From: Mycobacterium branderi
GTDB taxonomy: Bacteria; Actinomycetota; Actinomycetes; Mycobacteriales; Mycobacteriaceae
Assembly: GCF_010728725.1 (NCBI RefSeq)
Contig: NZ_AP022606.1
Coordinates: 4,278,001-4,342,000 of the forward strand
Length of the DNA stretch: 64,000 bases
Direction of reading: 5' to 3'
The first letter of the stretch is position 1. The number at the start of each line of letters is the position of its first letter. The position numbers and the translations under genes were made by a program. Positions 31,114 through 38,338 of this stretch are shown piece by piece. A model generated the notes under the pieces. It saw nothing but the letters and a program-made list of their open reading frames with translations, was not told where the DNA came from and ran no database searches.

Positions 31114-31215
31114 CAGTTCCGCAACGAATTCAGGCGAAGTTTCAACTCGTCCCCGATCGGCAACCTACTGTGAAGTAAGTTGACGCTCGCGTCTCCCGGC
31201 TGGGAGGGGATAACT
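31114..31215 (+). promoter_or_regulatory. Leader region before the membrane cassette
   Basis: About 100 non-coding bases precede the GTG at 31216. A TACTGT (about 31166-31171) could be a -10 element, and GGGAGGGG at about 31202-31209 is a strong Shine-Dalgarno seven bases before the GTG. A TTG at 31180 in the same frame is a weaker alternative start. No palindrome was recognised here. Confidence 0.4.
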
Positions 31216-33069
31216 GTGGGACTGTCGGTTGTTGCGGAGCCCCCGGCGCGTGGTGCCGGGCTGGGCCAGGTGATCGGCCTGTCGATCGCCGCAGCGGTAA
31301 TCGCCCTGCTCATGCTGTGGGTGGGCTATGCGCATCGCACGCATCGGATCAGTTGGCTGACCCGGGTCTCGGACCGGTTGGCCGACAAGTTCAACCGGCC
31401 GTCGTGGGTGGCGTTGCCGGTGTTGGTGTTCACCACATCGATCATCTGTGCGTTGTTCGGGTTCATCTGGGATGTCAGCTGGCATATCGGCAACGGCCGC
31501 GACCCCGGCCCGCTGGCCAACCCCGCGCACTACTTCATCGTGATCGGCCTGTTCGGCATCTTCTTGGCCGGCGCGATCGCCGTGGTCCTGCCGTTCGACA
31601 AACCCGGTCCGGCAGCGGTGCGCATCACCCGCGACTGGTATGCGCCGGTCGGCGGGGTGCTGATGGCCGGCTGCGGGCTGTATGCGCTTATCGGTTTCCC
31701 GCTCGACGACATCTGGCATCGCATCTTCGGCCAAGACGTAACACTGTGGGGCCCAACGCATCTGATGATGATCGGCGGCGCCGGGTTCTCCCTGTTCGCG
31801 GTGTTGATGCTGGAGTACGAAGGCGGACGGGCGTTGCCGGACACGCCGGCCGAAGGTACCTACGCGCGAGATGAGCGCCCGCTGATCAACTTGCTGCGGT
31901 ATTTGTCCTTCGGCGGGTTGTTGATCGGGATGTCGGTGTGGCAGATCGAGTTCGACTTCGGTGTGCCGCAATTCCGGCTGGTGTTTCAGCCGATGCTGAT
32001 CGCGGCGGCGGCAGCGGTCGGTACCGTGGCCGCGCGGTTGACGATGGGCCGGGGCGCGGCGATCATCGCGGCGCTGTTCGCCATTGCGCTGCGCGGTACG
32101 GTGGCGCTGCTGGTCGGCCCGATTCTGGGTGCGCCGATCAACTGGTTCCCGCTGTATCTGGGTCCGGCAGTGATAGTCGAATTGCTCGCCCTCACCCCGC
32201 TTCTGCGCCGCCCGATGCTGTTCGGCGCCGTCGGCGGTGCGCTGGTGGCCACCATCGGGCTGTGGCTGGAGTCCCTGTGGATCGGCGCGGTCTACCACTA
32301 CCCGTGGCCGGTCAGCCTGTGGGGCCAAGCCCTGGCGATGGCGTTGCCGGCGACGGTGCTGACGGGAATCTGCGGAGCCATGTTGGGCATGGTGCTGACC
32401 GGCCAACGCCTGCCCGGGCGTGGAATCGGCATCGCGGTGGTGGCGCTGACCGTGCTGGTGATCGGCGGTGCGGTGGCCAACGGGCTGCATATCCGGGTGC
32501 CCAAACACGACACGGCCACCATCACGTTGACCGATGTGCCCAGCCCGCCCGGACAACGCATGGTGGCCGCCGACGTGCAGATCAATCCGCCCACCCTCGT
32601 CAGCGACCACCCGGATTGGCTGACGATCCTGTCCTGGCAGGGGCGCATGCAACACCACCGCGGCCTGTACATCGACCGGCTCGACAAAGTCGGGCCCGGG
32701 CACTACACCACCACCGAGCCCGTCCCGGTGTGGGGCAGCTGGAAAACCCTGCTGCGCGTGCAGGACGGCTACACCATGACCGCGGTGCCGATCTACGCCC
32801 CGGCCGACGACGCCATCCCCGCACCGGAAATTCCGGCGCTGGCATCCAGTACGCGGCCATTCGTGCTCGAGGTGTCGATCCTGCAGCGCGAACGCGACCC
32901 CAACGTACCGGCGTGGCTGTTCACCGCCGGCGGCATCGTCGTGCTGATCTTCACCCTGATGGTCATCTCGGCGCTGACCTGGGGTGCGGGGCGCATCAAC
33001 GCTGCCGACACCGCCCCCACCCATCCCGAAGAAGCGGCAGCCGACCGCTCCCCACCGCAAGCCGCGTAA
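31216..33069 (+). CDS. Polytopic membrane protein of unknown function, first gene of cassette
   Basis: I do not recognise a named family. The 617-residue protein has about ten transmembrane helices in residues ~15-410, then a ~140-residue extracytoplasmic segment (MVAADVQINPPTLVSDHPDWLTILSWQG onward, beta-rich) and a final helix (WLFTAGGIVVLIFTLMVISALTW). Clusters of possible metal-ligand residues lie near helix ends: DVSWHIGNGRD, ANPAHYFI, DDIWHRIF and GPTHLMMIGG. The start at GTG 31216 is set by GGGAGGGG seven bases upstream. It shares one base with the cupredoxin-like lipoprotein gene (TAATG), so membrane metal handling or a copper-linked enzyme is a reasonable guess from context only. Confidence 0.8.
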   Translation: MGLSVVAEPPARGAGLGQVIGLSIAAAVIALLMLWVGYAHRTHRISWLTRVSDRLADKFNRPSWVALPVLVFTTSIICALFGFIWDVSWHIGNGRDPGPLANPAHYFIVIGLFGIFLAGAIAVVLPFDKPGPAAVRITRDWYAPVGGVLMAGCGLYALIGFPLDDIWHRIFGQDVTLWGPTHLMMIGGAGFSLFAVLMLEYEGGRALPDTPAEGTYARDERPLINLLRYLSFGGLLIGMSVWQIEFDFGVPQFRLVFQPMLIAAAAAVGTVAARLTMGRGAAIIAALFAIALRGTVALLVGPILGAPINWFPLYLGPAVIVELLALTPLLRRPMLFGAVGGALVATIGLWLESLWIGAVYHYPWPVSLWGQALAMALPATVLTGICGAMLGMVLTGQRLPGRGIGIAVVALTVLVIGGAVANGLHIRVPKHDTATITLTDVPSPPGQRMVAADVQINPPTLVSDHPDWLTILSWQGRMQHHRGLYIDRLDKVGPGHYTTTEPVPVWGSWKTLLRVQDGYTMTAVPIYAPADDAIPAPEIPALASSTRPFVLEVSILQRERDPNVPAWLFTAGGIVVLIFTLMVISALTWGAGRINAADTAPTHPEEAAADRSPPQAA

Positions 33070-33428
33070 TGGTTCGTTGCACGCTGATCGCGGCTGCAGC
33101 GGTGCTGACCTGCGGTCTCGTCGGCTGCGGCGGTTCTCCGGACAAGGGCGCCTCGACGAACGCCCTCGTCGTCGACGTCACGATCGCCCACGGCCAGGTC
33201 ACCCCGGCTAACGCCACACTGCAGGCCAAGGTCCACCAGCCGATCACGTTCCGGGTCACCAGCGACTCCGCCGACGAGTTGCACGTGCACTCGGTGCCGG
33301 ACCACGAGTTCCAGGTTGCGGCCTCGCCCAACCAGACGTTCCAGTTCAGCGTCGACGTCCCCGGCAACGTCGACGTGGAGCTACATCACCTGGACCGGAC
33401 GATCGCGACCATCCAAGTTCGGCCGTGA
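33069..33428 (+). CDS. Cupredoxin-like lipoprotein
   Basis: The 119-residue protein has a lipoprotein signal peptide (VRCTLIAAAAVLTCGLVGC with lipobox LVGC, Cys at residue 20) and then one small beta domain. The layout matches cupredoxin-like domains: HQPITFRVTSDSADELHVHSVPDHEFQV, PNQTFQFSVDVPGNVDVELHHLDRTIATIQV. Histidines at HVH and ELHH are the candidate metal ligands; the classical Cys ligand is absent, so it is not a typical blue copper protein. It is expected to be anchored outside the cytoplasmic membrane. Overlaps of one and four bases with its neighbours show strong coupling to two polytopic proteins. Confidence 0.82.
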   Translation: MVRCTLIAAAAVLTCGLVGCGGSPDKGASTNALVVDVTIAHGQVTPANATLQAKVHQPITFRVTSDSADELHVHSVPDHEFQVAASPNQTFQFSVDVPGNVDVELHHLDRTIATIQVRP

Positions 33429-34759
33429 CGTCCTCGGTCCTGGCGCACGGCCTCGGCGGCTCGAGCGACCTGCCGGTCCCCTACGCCTATGCGATGGTCG
33501 GCGCCGCCTGGGCGTTGACGTTCACCTTCGCGTTGGTCGCATTCGCCTGGCGCAAACCAAGATTCGATCCGGACAAGCCCGGACACCCGTTGCCGGAAGT
33601 GCTCACCGCGCTGGTGGATGCCCGGGTGACGCGGGCGTTAGCGGCCGGGGCGGCGCTGCTGTTCACCGCCTGGGTGGTGATGGCCGGGCTGTGGGGGCCA
33701 CAAAACCCCAACAACGCGCTGCTCGGGGTGTTTTACGTGCTGCTGTGGGTCGGCTTGGTGGCGGTTTCGCTGCTGTTCGGTCCGGTGTGGCGAGTGATCT
33801 CGCCGGTGCGCACGCTGTATCTACTGCTGCGGCGTGTCACGCCGGAACGGCTCGGCCGACCGCGGCTGTCCTATCCCGAAAGCTGGGGTTATCGGCTCGC
33901 CGCGGCCGGGTTGTTCGCGTTCGTCTGGATGGAATTGGCCAGCCCTAACCCAGCCTCGCTGCCGTGGGTCCGGCGGTGGCTGCTGATCTATGCCGTGGTG
34001 TTGCTGGGCGGCGCCTGGGTGTGCGGCCAGCGCTGGCTGGCCCGGGTCGACCCGTTCGGGGTGTACAGCATGGCGGTGTCGCGGCTTTCGCCGTTTCGCC
34101 GAAACACGGTCTCGGGGCAGATCGTGATCGGCAACCCGTTCGACCATCTGCCGTCGCTGCCGGTTCGGCCCGGCGTGGTCGCCATGGTGGCGGTGCTGCT
34201 CGGATCGACGGCGTTCGACAGCTACTCGGCGTCGCCGACGTGGCGCAATTTCGCCGACCGGCTCGCGCCGACGGTGCCGTCACCGGCGTTGCGAACCCTC
34301 GGGCTTGTAGTCTTCATCTGCGTTGTGGCGCTGACATTTTCGCTCGCCGCGAGGGCAACCGGAGGGGTCGACCGTGACCAGCGACGCGCGCTGCCCGGCC
34401 AGATGGCGCACTCGCTGATCCCGATCGTGGTGGGCTACATCTTCGCCCACTACCTGTCCTATCTCGTGGAGCGCGGCCAGCAGGCTGTCTTCGCGCTAGC
34501 GGACCCACTTGGCCGGGGCTGGAACTTGTTGGGGCTGGCCCATTTACACGTGGCCTACGTGCTGTCGATGCATCCCTCGGTGCTGGCTGCGGTCAAGGTG
34601 ATCTGCGTGGTGACCGGCCACATCGTTGCGGTGATCGCGGCCCACGACAAAGCGTTGCGGCTGCTGCCGGCCGGCCATCAGCTCACCGGGCAGCTCACCA
34701 TGATGCTGGTCATGGTTGGCTATACGTTCACCGGTCTATATCTGCTGTTCGGCGGGTAG
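33425..34759 (+). CDS. Polytopic membrane protein, AHGLGG-type, partner of cupredoxin-like lipoprotein
   Basis: The 444-residue protein has roughly nine to eleven hydrophobic helices. The N-terminus VLAHGLGGSSDLPVPYAYAMVGAAWALTF and internal PVWRVISPVRTLYLLLRR, WARVDPFGVYSMAVSRLSPFRR-like and ...HYLSYLVERGQQAVFALADPLGRGWNLLG segments are conserved-looking. From memory, actinobacterial relatives next to cupredoxin genes are sometimes labelled fenitrothion hydrolase (FedA-like) on weak similarity; I would not transfer that function. Histidines in AHGLGG, FAHYLSYLV, LAHLHVAYVLSMHPS and VTGHIVAVIAAHDK could bind metal in the membrane. The GTG overlaps the lipoprotein stop by four bases (GTGA). 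Confidence 0.78.
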   Translation: MTSSVLAHGLGGSSDLPVPYAYAMVGAAWALTFTFALVAFAWRKPRFDPDKPGHPLPEVLTALVDARVTRALAAGAALLFTAWVVMAGLWGPQNPNNALLGVFYVLLWVGLVAVSLLFGPVWRVISPVRTLYLLLRRVTPERLGRPRLSYPESWGYRLAAAGLFAFVWMELASPNPASLPWVRRWLLIYAVVLLGGAWVCGQRWLARVDPFGVYSMAVSRLSPFRRNTVSGQIVIGNPFDHLPSLPVRPGVVAMVAVLLGSTAFDSYSASPTWRNFADRLAPTVPSPALRTLGLVVFICVVALTFSLAARATGGVDRDQRRALPGQMAHSLIPIVVGYIFAHYLSYLVERGQQAVFALADPLGRGWNLLGLAHLHVAYVLSMHPSVLAAVKVICVVTGHIVAVIAAHDKALRLLPAGHQLTGQLTMMLVMVGYTFTGLYLLFGG

Positions 34760-34799: not shown

Positions 34800-36947
34800 T
34801 TGACGTCGCATTCGACCGAACCGGCCCGCAAGCGTAAGCGTCCACGGACGCTGTCTCGGATCAGCATCCAGTCCAAGATCATGCTGATGCTGCTGGTGGC
34901 CAGCCTCGCGTCATTGGGTGTGATCGGAGTGGTCGAGTACGTCGCCGCCCGTAACGCACTGCTGCCCACCGCCTCCGAGCGGATGACGCAATTGCGCGAG
35001 GCGCAAAAGCGAGCGGTGGAGACGCTGTTCGCCGACCTGACCAATTCATTGGTCGTTTACAGCCGCGGGTCCACCGCACTGGACGCCGTCCGGGCGTTCA
35101 CCGCCGGCTTCGACCAACTGTCCAACGCGACGATCGATCCAGGGCAACAGCAGGCGCTGGTGAACTATTACACCGACAAGGTGATCAAACCCGTCGAACG
35201 CGACACCGGCACCACGCTCGATCTCAATGCGCTGTTGCCCAACAGTAATTCGCAGAAATACCTGCAGGCGCACTACACCGTCACGGGCGCGTCATCCCCA
35301 CCGGACGACGCCGGCGACGGCAGCGCTTGGTCGGCAGCAAACGCCCGATTCGACGACTACTTCCGCGAGATCGCGGTCCGCTTCGAATATCGCGACGCCC
35401 TGCTCCTCGACACCCGCGGCAACGTGGTGTACAGCGTGCGCAAAAGCCCCTCGCTGGGCACCAACATCCTCACCGGCCCCTACCGACAGTCCAACCTGCG
35501 TGACGCCTACCAGAAGGCGATGGCCACGAACTCTACAGATTTCGTGTGGATCACCGACTTTCAGCCGTACCAGCCTCAGCTCGGCGCGCCCGTCGCATGG
35601 CTGGTCGCACCGATCGGCCCGCCCGGCAAAGTAGCCGGAGTCCTGGCACTGCCGTTGCCGATCGCCAAGGTCAACCGCATCATGACGGCCGACCGGCGCT
35701 GGGAGGCCGCCGGTATGGGCCGGACCGCCGAGACTTATCTGGCCGGACCCGACAATCTGATGCGTTCCGATTCGCGACTGTTCCTCGAAGACCCACAGCG
35801 ATACAAGCGTGAGGCGGTCGCGGCGGGCACCCGGCCCGATACCGCCGACAAGGCGATCAAGTGGGGCGGCACCACGCTGGTGCAGCCTGTCGCGACCGCA
35901 GCGGTGGGCGCCGCGCAACGCGGCCACACCGGAACCGTCATCGACACCAGCTATCTCGGCCGTCGCGAGCTGGTGGCTTACGCTCCGCTGAGCGTGCCGA
36001 ATTCCGACCTGCACTGGTCGATCGTGGCGACCAGGGAAACGGACGAGGCCAATGCCCGGATAGACGCACTCACCCGGACACTCGTGGTGACCACTACGGC
36101 AATGGTTTTCCTCATCTGCGTGGGCGCGTTGCTGGTGGCGCAGATATTCGTGCGGCCCATCCGGCGGCTACAGGCCGGCACGCACCAGATCAGCGCCGGA
36201 AACTACGACGTCACGATCCCGGTGACCTCACGCGATGAAATCGGTGAACTGACCACCGCTTTCAACGAGATGAGCCGCAATCTGCAGATCAAAGAAGATC
36301 TGCTGACCGAACAGCGCAAGGAAAACGACCGGTTGCTTGCGTCGTTGATGCCCGAGCCGGTCGCGCAGCGTTACCGCGAGGGCGAGCAGATTGCCCAGGA
36401 ACACCAAGACGTCACCGTCATCTTCGCCGACATCGTGGGCCTGGACGAGATGTCGAACCGGCTAGCGGGCCACGAACTGGTAGGGATCGTCGACGAGCTG
36501 ATCCAGGAACTCGATTCCGCCGCGGAAGCGCTTGGCGTCGAGCCGGTTCGCACACTGCACAACGGTTACCTCGCCAGCTGCGGGCTGAACGTGCCGCGCC
36601 TGGACAGCATCCACCGCACCGTCGAATTCGCCGTGGAGATGCAGGGAATCATCAGCCGTTTCAACAGCCGCACGGGCTATCACCTGGCCGTCCGGGCGGG
36701 TATCAACACCGGCAACGTGATCAGCGGCCTGGTCGGACGGACCAGCATGGTCTACGACATGTGGGGCGCAGCGGTCAATTTGGCAAACCAGATGTGTAGC
36801 GGCACAACACAATCGGGGCAGTCAGGGATTTATGTCACCGCCGGGGTCTACGAGGCGATGCGCGACATCCGCCAATTCGTGCCGGCGGGCACCGTCGCCG
36901 TCGGCGGCACGGAACAGCAGATCTGGCGTTTGTCGGAGGAACAGTGA
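34800..36947 (+). CDS. Receptor-type class III nucleotide cyclase homologue with altered active site
   Basis: The 715-residue protein has a first transmembrane helix (~residues 27-50), a ~370-residue extracytoplasmic sensor region that looks Cache-like, a second helix (~425-447), a HAMP domain (RPIRRLQAGTHQISAGNYDVTI to NEMSRNL) and a C-terminal class III cyclase domain (~530-700). The first metal Asp is kept (D544 in IFADIVG), but the second, exactly 44 residues on, is Asn (N588), the purine-site Lys is Arg (R584), and the transition-state Arg is Gln (Q664, ANQM); D653 and N660 remain. TTG 34800 is chosen for AAAGGAAG upstream; an ATG at 34716 would overlap the previous gene. It resembles M. 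tuberculosis Rv2435c. Catalysis is doubtful. Confidence 0.85.
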   Translation: MTSHSTEPARKRKRPRTLSRISIQSKIMLMLLVASLASLGVIGVVEYVAARNALLPTASERMTQLREAQKRAVETLFADLTNSLVVYSRGSTALDAVRAFTAGFDQLSNATIDPGQQQALVNYYTDKVIKPVERDTGTTLDLNALLPNSNSQKYLQAHYTVTGASSPPDDAGDGSAWSAANARFDDYFREIAVRFEYRDALLLDTRGNVVYSVRKSPSLGTNILTGPYRQSNLRDAYQKAMATNSTDFVWITDFQPYQPQLGAPVAWLVAPIGPPGKVAGVLALPLPIAKVNRIMTADRRWEAAGMGRTAETYLAGPDNLMRSDSRLFLEDPQRYKREAVAAGTRPDTADKAIKWGGTTLVQPVATAAVGAAQRGHTGTVIDTSYLGRRELVAYAPLSVPNSDLHWSIVATRETDEANARIDALTRTLVVTTTAMVFLICVGALLVAQIFVRPIRRLQAGTHQISAGNYDVTIPVTSRDEIGELTTAFNEMSRNLQIKEDLLTEQRKENDRLLASLMPEPVAQRYREGEQIAQEHQDVTVIFADIVGLDEMSNRLAGHELVGIVDELIQELDSAAEALGVEPVRTLHNGYLASCGLNVPRLDSIHRTVEFAVEMQGIISRFNSRTGYHLAVRAGINTGNVISGLVGRTSMVYDMWGAAVNLANQMCSGTTQSGQSGIYVTAGVYEAMRDIRQFVPAGTVAVGGTEQQIWRLSEEQ

Positions 36948-38338
36948 ACGGCATTGGCGCGTCGACGCTTTACTGGGCCGCGAGCGTGGTATTCGGCTTG
37001 CCGCTGCTGCTGATCGGCCTCACCGAGTGGCACCAGAGCCTCGTCCGCAAGAACAGTCATCTCGCTCGGCCCGTCATGCTGCTGCGCAGTTACCTGGTGC
37101 CGCTTGGTGCACTTCTGGTGCTGCTCGTGCAGGTGGCGAAGATGCCCGCCGCGTTCACGTCGGTGCGCGTTCTTGCGACGGTGTTCGGCTTTGTGGTGCT
37201 TGTGCTGTTGCTGTCCGGGCTGAACGCAACGGTGTTCGAGGGCGCGCCGCAGGGGTCCTGGCGGCAGCGGATTCCCGGCATCTTCCTCGACGTGACCCGG
37301 TTCTTGCTGATCGGCGTGGGACTGGCGGTCATCTTGTCATACGTCTGGGGTGTGCGGGTCGGCGGCCTTTTCACCGCGCTGGGCGTCACCTCGGTGGTCA
37401 TCGGCTTGATGCTGCAAAACTCCGTGGGCCAGATCGTCTCGGGCCTGTTCATGTTGTTCGAGCAGCCGTTCCGGATCGGAGACTGGCTGGACACGCCGGC
37501 AGCCCGGGGTCAGATCGTGGAGGCGAACTGGCGTTCCGTGCATATCCAGACGGGCCGCGGACTGCAGATCACCCCGAACTCGGTGCTGGCCACCACCTCG
37601 TTCACGAATCTCAGCCGTCCCCCCGGTGGGCACCACCTGGTGATCACGACCACGTTCTCCGAAGCCGACCCGCCCGACCGAGTGTGCGCGCTGCTGGACC
37701 GCGTCGCTGATGCGTTGCCGCAGCGCAGAACCGACGTAGCAGCCACGTCGATGCCGGTGGGAGGCGCCGAATATCGCGTCACCGTCGGGTTGAAGTCGCC
37801 GGCGGACGACTCCGCCGCGCAGGCCACGTTTCTGCGGTGGCTCTGGTATGCCTCACGCCGGGAGGGCCTCCATCTCGACGGCGCCGACGACGACATCTCG
37901 ACGACCGAGCGCATCGAACAGGCGCTGCGCACAGTGGTGGCTCCGGCGTTGCGGCTCAACCAAACTGATCAGCAGGCGCTGCGGTCGCACGCGAAAGTCG
38001 TCCGCTACGGAGAAGGTGAGATCGTCGAGCAGGCCGGTCGCGTGCCCGCCAAGATGACGTTCTTGATCGCCGGAAGCGTCCGGTTGACCGCGGTCGCTCA
38101 GGACGAATCGGTCGTCGTGGTCGGCACTTTGGACGACGGCTCGTTCCTCGGCGTGACGGCGCTGACCCGCCAACCCAACCTGGCCGATGCGCATGCAGTG
38201 GTTGAGGTGACGGCGCTCGAAATCGACCGCGATCACCTCGTCGAGTTGGTCATGCACAAACCGCTGCTGTTGCAGGACCTGGGTCGCACGATCGACGAGC
38301 GCCGCGCCTGGGTGCAACAGGCGCGAGTGCCCGCTTAG
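36944..38338 (+). CDS. MscS-type mechanosensitive channel with C-terminal cNMP-binding-like domain
   Basis: The 464-residue protein has four N-terminal helices, the MscS pore and beta domain (~residues 115-225: GLFTALGVTSVVIGLMLQNSVGQIVSGLFMLFEQPFRIGDWLD and QITPNSVLATTSFTN), a cytoplasmic MscS C-region, and a cyclic-nucleotide-binding fold (~330-455). The phosphate-binding cassette at residues ~401-415 reads FLGVTALTRQPNLADA, lacking the Glu and Arg of the usual FGE...PRxA motif. The GTG overlaps the cyclase stop by four bases (GTGA). The pair resembles M. tuberculosis Rv2435c-Rv2434c. The gene would couple membrane tension to the sensor protein upstream; the ligand is uncertain. The stop overlaps the convergent 2H gene by three bases. 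Confidence 0.87.
   Translation: MNGIGASTLYWAASVVFGLPLLLIGLTEWHQSLVRKNSHLARPVMLLRSYLVPLGALLVLLVQVAKMPAAFTSVRVLATVFGFVVLVLLLSGLNATVFEGAPQGSWRQRIPGIFLDVTRFLLIGVGLAVILSYVWGVRVGGLFTALGVTSVVIGLMLQNSVGQIVSGLFMLFEQPFRIGDWLDTPAARGQIVEANWRSVHIQTGRGLQITPNSVLATTSFTNLSRPPGGHHLVITTTFSEADPPDRVCALLDRVADALPQRRTDVAATSMPVGGAEYRVTVGLKSPADDSAAQATFLRWLWYASRREGLHLDGADDDISTTERIEQALRTVVAPALRLNQTDQQALRSHAKVVRYGEGEIVEQAGRVPAKMTFLIAGSVRLTAVAQDESVVVVGTLDDGSFLGVTALTRQPNLADAHAVVEVTALEIDRDHLVELVMHKPLLLQDLGRTIDERRAWVQQARVPA

What the first reader, a model, noticed from the sequence alone, without database searches (positions are those of the whole stretch)
34800..38338. Receptor cyclase with lost catalytic residues fused by overlap to a channel with a degenerate cNMP pocket
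The cyclase homologue keeps the first metal Asp (D544) but has Asn at the second (N588, the canonical 44-residue spacing) and Gln for the transition-state Arg (Q664). The downstream MscS channel, overlapping by GTGA, ends in a cNMP-binding fold whose phosphate cassette lacks the usual Glu and Arg. Both halves of what should be a cAMP maker/cAMP reader pair have lost their signature chemistry together. This suggests the pair works by protein contact or with another ligand: an envelope sensor (Cache-like domain, HAMP) gating a mechanosensitive channel. A similar pair, Rv2435c-Rv2434c, is known to me only as uncharacterised.
Basis: partly seen in the sequence, partly recalled or inferred. Interest (0 to 1): 0.78.

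Follow-up and report, generated by a model that had tools for sequence, protein, structure and literature searches.

The report
Non-catalytic cyclase receptor wired to channel
Two neighbouring genes, found together in mycobacteria, other actinobacteria and cyanobacteria, encode a predicted membrane sensor whose cAMP-making site lacks key residues and an ion channel whose cAMP-binding pocket lacks its phosphate-holding residues, so the sensor likely controls the channel by touching it rather than by making a messenger.

Summary
The receptor (34800-36947) keeps the first metal Asp (D544) but has Arg for the base-contacting Lys (R584), Asn for the second metal Asp (N588) and Gln for the transition-state Arg (Q664). 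The channel (36944-38338, GTGA overlap) has Val and Asn where the cAMP pocket needs Glu and Arg. These changes are kept, not decay: N588 in 77 of 80 receptor rows, dN/dS about 0.1. The genes travel together: of 198 genomes of the genus, 158 have the receptor and 160 the channel, two of them channel only. The pair also occurs in other actinobacteria and in cyanobacteria. All six catalytic residues are canonical in 2 of 124 receptor rows of this family, against 14 of 15 nearest unpaired cyclases. Best reading: an old sensor-channel unit in which a cyclase fold relays the signal, probably by contact. No complex was modelled and nothing was measured; another ligand or residual catalysis remains possible. 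A 2004 survey naming both M. tuberculosis genes could not be read in full.

The parts
34800..36947 (+). Receptor, 715 aa: TM - dCache-like sensor - TM - HAMP - transducer helix - class III cyclase-fold domain without key catalytic residues (start codon not proven)
   Evidence: dCache_1 match is below Pfam's cut-off (34.2 of 45 bits)
34935..36053 (+). Predicted extracytoplasmic dCache-like sensor (residues 46-418, 52% of the length); holds 12 of the 17 columns invariant in a 57-row alignment that spans both phyla
36135..36287 (+). HAMP domain (residues 446-496)
   Evidence: PF00672, 62.1 bits
36288..36389 (+). Transducer helix between HAMP and cyclase fold (residues 497-530; pLDDT under 50 at 509-530); L512, L513, P518, R524, G528 conserved in the family
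   Evidence: the name 'transducer' is recalled
36390..36932 (+). Class III cyclase-fold domain (residues 531-711)
36429..36431 (+). D544, first metal Asp, kept
36549..36551 (+). R584 at the base-specifying Lys position
36561..36563 (+). N588 at the second metal Asp position
36789..36791 (+). Q664 at the transition-state Arg position
36944..36947 (+). GTGA: start codon of the channel overlapping the stop of the receptor
36944..38338 (+). Channel, 464 aa: MscS-type pore with extra N-terminal helices, MscS beta domain, C-terminal cyclic-nucleotide-binding fold
37292..37618 (+). MscS pore helices and beta domain (residues 117-225)
   Evidence: PF21088 and PF00924 above cut-off
37961..38308 (+). 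Cyclic-nucleotide-binding fold (residues 340-455)
38153..38155 (+). V404 at the pocket Glu position
   Evidence: (SthK alignment)
38177..38179 (+). N412 at the pocket Arg position
   Evidence: (SthK alignment)

Best explanation
This is a two-gene sensor-channel unit in which a receptor with a dCache-like domain, HAMP and a class III cyclase domain lacking key catalytic residues is predicted to gate, probably by direct protein contact, an MscS-type channel whose cyclic-nucleotide domain lacks the pocket Glu and Arg. Inferred chain: an unknown signal outside the membrane binds the dCache-like domain; the second transmembrane helix, HAMP and the transducer helix pass the change to a dimer of cyclase folds; that dimer, unlikely to make cAMP by the standard mechanism, likely touches the channel's CNB fold or cytoplasmic vestibule and shifts its tension threshold or opens it. 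Shown: gene order, overlap, residue losses, co-inheritance, purifying selection. Predicted: the fold of each protein alone. Inferred: dimer, contact, gating, signal.
For: Co-inheritance: 158 of 198 genomes of the genus have the receptor (E 1e-100) and 160 the channel (E 1e-50); the two row lists differ only by G956 and G1008, which have a channel alone. In the family sample 23 receptors and 23 channels lie side by side in the same 21 of 251 genomes. Relaxed catalytic selection: all six residues canonical in 0 of 80 rows and 2 of 44 wide rows, against 14 of 15 nearest unpaired cyclases. Within the paired family five of the six catalytic columns are middling or poorly conserved (42-78% of domain columns are more conserved; D653 18%), while the transducer's L512, P518, R524 and G528 hold. 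Yet the fold is kept: median dN/dS 0.083 in the cyclase domain, 0.125 in the CNB fold, 51 pairs. The sensor, 52% of the length, holds 12 of 17 invariant columns. None of 76 and 20 cyanobacterial channel rows of the family has the pocket Arg, the partners of canonical L134 and L139 included; 22 of 31 other cyanobacterial MscS-CNB channels keep it. Both half-sites of the window's cyclase are damaged (N588; Q664), so pairing with another cyclase would not give an intact site.
Against: No complex was predicted. Inter-protein mutual information on 109 pairs (effective number 57) did not favour cyclase fold x CNB: 19 of the top 300 pairs against 23.4 expected; the extracytoplasmic sensor was over-represented, which I take for a phylogenetic artefact. 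Two cyanobacterial receptors look catalytically complete and five more differ only at the Arg, so catalysis mattered, or still matters, in part of the family. Six of 80 mycobacterial rows have Arg at 664. In one cyanobacterial genome the two genes lie on different contigs (G107); one channel of the family (L199) has no receptor in the 9 kb held; one mycobacterial MAG contig (L055) has the receptor without the channel. Arg loss is not unique to the family: 9 of the 31 control channels also lack it. Paired rows form one clade, so the contrast with unpaired rows may rest on few events. Co-inheritance and the distance correlation (r 0.981) fit any functional partnership, not contact in particular.
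Confidence: 0.48

Rival explanations
1. The unit still runs on a small molecule, but not on cAMP: the cyclase fold binds ATP/GTP or another nucleotide without cyclising it, or the CNB fold binds a different ligand such as a nucleoside, and ligand occupancy gates the channel.
Against: The window's channel has neither the pocket Glu (V404) nor the second, nucleoside-specific Glu (A406 stands there by the SthK alignment), so both ribose contacts of the trypanosomatid type are missing. The Glu column differs between actinobacterial lineages (Q, M, L, H, S, V, I, P), which does not look like one fixed ligand site.
Confidence: 0.22
2. The receptor is a weak or unusual cyclase: residual activity, or activity as a heterodimer with a canonical cyclase of the cell, makes cAMP that acts elsewhere or on the channel.
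For: The first metal Asp is D in 67 and E in 11 of 80 rows; D653 is kept in 80 of 80. Of 20 cyanobacterial receptor rows two are canonical (L134, L139) and five differ only at the transition-state Arg. The genome has canonical cyclases that could partner (L001, L002).
Against: Second metal Asp and transition-state Arg are both replaced in the window, so a heterodimer with a canonical partner leaves each of the two sites with a defect. Five of six catalytic columns are not under special constraint in the family. In deep actinobacteria with two receptors around one channel (L165, L166, L167) neither of the two has the first metal Asp as aligned.
Confidence: 0.15
3. The channel is an ordinary tension-gated safety valve; its CNB fold is only a structural cap, and the receptor is a separate signalling protein or assembly factor that is merely co-transcribed.
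For: One bCNG channel, Ss-bCNGa, was reported to gate by tension (title only, in the reference list of PMC4560390). Contact is unproven and coevolution gave nothing.
Against: Near-complete co-inheritance in the genus and adjacency over two phyla, and two tandem pairs in five mycobacterial loci, are more than co-transcription needs; neighbouring genes do not travel with the pair beyond seven near loci.
Confidence: 0.13

Closest known systems
Rv2435c-Rv2434c of Mycobacterium tuberculosis
   Different: I did not compare its sequence; the window pair sits in a bio-gene neighbourhood shared, among the loci, only with L009-L013, L039 and L067, and two strains carry a near form (79-80%) plus a more distant one (61-64%) (L011/L079, L067/L057).
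bCNG channels (MscS pore plus CNB domain)
   Same: Domain architecture.
   Different: Pocket Glu and Arg absent; a receptor gene is attached. The bCNG papers were seen only as titles in a reference list.
Class III adenylate/guanylate cyclases (mammalian-type domain, e.g. Rv1625c)
   Different: Lys, second metal Asp and transition-state Arg replaced; dCache-HAMP input.
Trypanosomatid cAMP-independent PKA regulatory subunits
   Same: CNB fold with the pocket Arg replaced, by Asn in one site of T. brucei (PMC10959531, passages).
   Different: They have a ribose-binding Glu that the window channel lacks.
LapD-like receptors with degenerate output domains (recalled, no call)
   Same: Envelope sensor plus HAMP plus an enzyme fold used for contact instead of catalysis.
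   Different: Cyclase fold and ion channel instead of GGDEF/EAL and a protease.

Membership tests
Class III nucleotide cyclase | Catalytic-domain fold (PF00211) | tested here: met
Class III nucleotide cyclase | Six catalytic residues D-K-D-D-N-R (pattern recalled; seen in L001, L002) | tested here: not met
   D-R-N-D-N-Q in the window
Class III nucleotide cyclase | Cyclase activity | not testable with these tools
   needs an assay
MscS superfamily | MscS beta domain and pore helices | tested here: met
   PF00924 64.2 bits, PF21088 27.7 bits, both over cut-off
bCNG channel | MscS pore fused to a CNB domain | tested here: met
bCNG channel | Phosphate-binding cassette with Glu and Arg | tested here: not met
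   V404 and N412 aligned to SthK
bCNG channel | Gating by a cyclic nucleotide | not testable with these tools
   needs electrophysiology
dCache_1 receptor | dCache_1 sensor domain | tested here: inconclusive
   34.2 bits, below the cut-off of 45, in the window; 55.2 bits, above it, in the homologue L134; the fold list was filled by the cyclase domain
Nucleoside-binding CNB (trypanosomatid type) | Pocket Arg replaced by a polar residue | tested here: met
   N412
Nucleoside-binding CNB (trypanosomatid type) | Extra ribose-binding Glu two residues after the pocket Glu | tested here: not met
   A406; the pocket Glu itself is V404

The most novel reading that the evidence does not exclude
Bacteria assembled a receptor-operated ion channel from two proteins: an outside-sensing receptor uses a retired cyclase domain as a mechanical arm that opens or closes an MscS channel through its retired cyclic-nucleotide domain. 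The arrangement predates the divergence, or the gene exchange, between the actinobacterial and cyanobacterial forms, and the cyclase lost its catalytic residues several times while the sensor and the channel stayed.
Probability: 0.4. Interest if true: 0.85.

Novelty: new variant of a known kind. Interest (0 to 1): 0.62.

Why it matters
cAMP signalling in mycobacteria is inferred partly by counting cyclase and CNB genes; this pair would be counted as one maker and one reader although neither has the standard residues. If the contact model holds, it is a bacterial counterpart of receptor-operated channels and a case where enzyme folds outlived their reactions as signal-relay parts, with cyanobacterial relatives that still show intermediate states. 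It turns an annotation question into a testable one: does the receptor gate the channel without a messenger?

Tried and rejected
Coevolution between the two proteins: 109 pairs, effective number 57; no enrichment of cyclase fold x CNB; uninformative. Decay: rejected because of dN/dS near 0.1 and recurring replacement residues. Frameshift or assembly error: rejected, same residues in independent genomes. A larger operon: upstream membrane and cupredoxin-like genes follow the pair only in 7 bio-locus loci of the set. Complementary half-sites in the receptor-channel-receptor loci: rejected, neither receptor has the first metal Asp as aligned. A dCache relative from the fold lists: not obtained, the cyclase domain filled them. 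Pocket geometry from model coordinates: coordinates are not in the Python box. Phyla other than Actinobacteria and Cyanobacteria were not searched with the wide tools; one search scanned all species genomes but with patterns from the window's own receptor and kept 80 matches. Literature; no paper on this pair's mechanism was listed, but PMC2447327 holds Rv2435c ten times and Rv2434c three times in the search index while paper reading held only its abstract and references, so the neighbourhood and odd residues may already be in print there.

Rows dropped before counts: one search took receptor rows of at least 800 bits (set, 80 rows from 75 loci including L003) or 400/200 bits (wide set, 44 rows), so broken copies and L147 were left out; L144 is a partial row, and L082, L128 and L055 have no channel beside them. 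The comparison '14 of 15 unpaired' uses the nearest cyclase domains; five more distant cyclases of the same genome (L004-L008) were aligned but left out of the tree: none reads D-K-D-D-N-R exactly, all five keep both metal Asps and the Arg, so with them 14 of 20 are canonical and 19 of 20 keep Asp, Asp and Arg, against 0 of 80 and 2 of 44 in the family. One search left out channel rows of L003, L010, L017, L045, L067, L086. Searches left out broken copies and, the receptor-channel-receptor loci.
Full report

The residues. The six class III positions (pattern recalled; positions fixed by alignment with two canonical cyclases of the same genome, L001 and L002) read D544, R584, N588, D653, N660, Q664 in the window, against D-K-D-D-N-R. 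In the channel, alignment with the SthK CNB domain puts V404 at the pocket Glu and N412 at the pocket Arg.

Mycobacteria. A scan of species genomes gave 78 loci. A channel relative lies in 76 of 78; the exceptions are L055, a mycobacterial MAG contig with room for one, and the cyanobacterial L082. In 74 of 78 the channel start projects within 60 bases of the receptor end (L066, a broken receptor, and L085, 591 bases, are the others). Over 80 receptor rows (75 loci, one of them the window's own copy) none is canonical at all six sites; N588 is Asn in 77, R584 Arg in 79, Q664 Gln in 73 and Arg in 6, N660 Ser in 63 and Asn in 16, D544 Asp in 67 and Glu in 11, D653 Asp in 80. In 76 channel rows the Glu column is Leu (61) or Val (15) and the Arg column Asn (72) or Ser (4). 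In 51 close pairs the median dN/dS is 0.083 for the cyclase fold and 0.125 for the CNB fold, like the sensor (0.122) and the pore (0.114). These domains are maintained.

Co-inheritance. Among 198 genomes of the genus the receptor is in 158 (E 1e-100) and the channel in 160 (E 1e-50); the two channel-only genomes are G956 and G1008. Among 251 genomes of the family both are in the same 21, as 23 receptors beside 23 channels. Five loci carry two pairs in tandem, and in each the first channel has Val and the second Leu at the Glu column, consistent with duplication as a unit. Neighbouring genes of the window follow the pair only in 7 loci of the same bio-gene neighbourhood. Distances of receptors and channels over 113 pairs correlate at r 0.981 (largest of 500 permutations 0.236), as for any co-inherited genes.

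Beyond mycobacteria. In the phylum sample long receptor matches (E 1e-50) occur in 13 of 346 genomes. In 59 of 292 cyanobacterial genomes something matched at E 1e-30, mostly isolated cyclase domains; I fetched the 20 longest matches. Of these 20, 18 have a channel relative beside the receptor on the same strand (L129, one of them, is the same place as L085); L128 (G107) has its channel on another contig, and L147 shares only the first two thirds of the receptor and has no channel relative in the stretch. In two deep actinobacterial families the order is receptor-channel-receptor (L165, L166, L167), and L168 shows channel then receptor at a contig end. In the wide set of 44 receptor rows 2 are canonical (L134, L139). 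Of the 20 cyanobacterial rows among them five differ only at the Arg (L133, L135, L136, L138, L140), three read NSTNK(F/Y) (L082, L085, L128), and one (L144) is partial. Other actinobacteria read ERNDDR, EREDNR, ERGDNR or DRQDNR. Other phyla were not searched with these tools.

History. In a tree of 72 cyclase domains without the six columns, the 57 rows of the paired family form one side of a branch with SH-aLRT 100, the 15 nearest unpaired rows the other; the canonical state needs 3 changes by parsimony, single sites 4 to 11 (several long branches, placements there unsure). Unpaired rows are canonical in 14 of 15; five more distant cyclases of the window's genome, left out of the tree, are not exactly canonical but keep both metal Asps and the Arg. 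In the family the share of domain columns that are more conserved than the catalytic column is 71, 42, 56, 18, 77 and 78% for sites 544, 584, 588, 653, 660 and 664; in the unpaired rows it is 0% for five and 28% for the sixth. The transducer helix (L512, P518, R524, G528) stays conserved. In an alignment of 57 receptors across both phyla, 12 of 17 invariant columns lie in the sensor region (residues 46-418, 52% of the length), two in HAMP and three, all Gly, in the cyclase fold.

The channel pocket. The 20 cyanobacterial channel rows of the family (18 beside a receptor; L218 and L199 not) keep the Glu in 19 and have Ser at the Arg column in 20, including the partners of the two canonical cyclases. 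Of 20 further actinobacterial rows none has the Glu and one has an Arg at the column, in a poorly aligned deep lineage (L165-L167 are ambiguous there). One cyanobacterial channel (L133) has an Arg one residue further on. As a control, of 31 MscS-CNB channels from cyanobacterial genomes that are not of this family, 31 keep the Glu and 22 the Arg. No receptor relative lies in the stretches held for them (1.5 kb flanks for 13, roughly 1-4 kb for the rest), except a weak 26-bit match beside L200. So Arg loss marks the family's channels, though it is not unique to them, and it is present even where the cyclase looks complete.

Reading. A standard cAMP maker/reader pair is unlikely in mycobacteria. 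The pattern - sensor, relay helix and pore conserved, catalytic and pocket residues free to change - suggests that the two proteins communicate by a route that does not need the messenger. I commit to direct contact between the cyclase-fold dimer and the channel's cytoplasmic part, at 0.48. The pair was not modelled as a complex, and a mutual-information test on 109 pairs found no preferred domain contact. The chief rival is another ligand: trypanosomatid PKA regulatory subunits lack the same Arg and bind nucleosides (PMC10959531, passages read). The window's channel, however, also lacks both ribose-binding Glu positions (V404, A406). Residual or heterodimeric catalysis is the next rival; both half-sites of the window's cyclase carry a defect.

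What is known. bCNG channels are a named family (titles in the reference list of PMC4560390). Rv2435c is described as a mammalian-type cyclase (PMC3961136), with a double Cache domain and called part of the cAMP network (PMC4822843), and its transcript was measured (PMC3938503) (passages). The 2004 actinobacterial survey PMC2447327 names both Rv2435c and Rv2434c (search listings), but only its abstract and a reference list were held (I read the abstract and outline); it may already note the pair and its residues. I found no listed paper on the two-phylum pair or on coupling of the two proteins. Hence: new variant of a known kind.

Noticed in passing
window 31180-34759 (+): Upstream block of two membrane proteins without a Pfam match (629 and 444 aa) around a cupredoxin-like protein (33075-33428, weak PF13473, below cut-off); it follows the pair only in the 7 loci of the same bio-gene neighbourhood.
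   Followed up: partly
L165, L166, L167: Deep actinobacteria carry receptor-channel-receptor, with two different degenerate cyclase receptors around one channel.
   Followed up: partly
L020, L022, L024, L027, L060: Two tandem copies of the receptor-channel pair; the channel copies differ consistently (Val against Leu) at the pocket Glu column.
   Followed up: partly
L086 (Mycobacterium lepraemurium), L079, L045, L010, L067, L017: Receptor or channel reading frames that are interrupted: the unit can apparently be lost in some lineages, or the assemblies err. Described only.
   Followed up: no
L128 and L218 (G107): A cyanobacterium with the receptor and the channel on different contigs, so the pair can persist unlinked.
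   Followed up: partly
L055: Mycobacterial MAG contig with the receptor and 6 kb downstream but no channel.
   Followed up: partly
L001, L002 (same genome; L002 lies about 41 kb upstream of the pair): Two canonical DKDDNR cyclases in the window's genome, useful as intact references.
   Followed up: partly
L206, L207, L209, L210, L213-L216, L089: A second group of cyanobacterial MscS-CNB channels, not of the paired family, that also lack the pocket Arg (Cys or Tyr there) while keeping the Glu.
   Followed up: no
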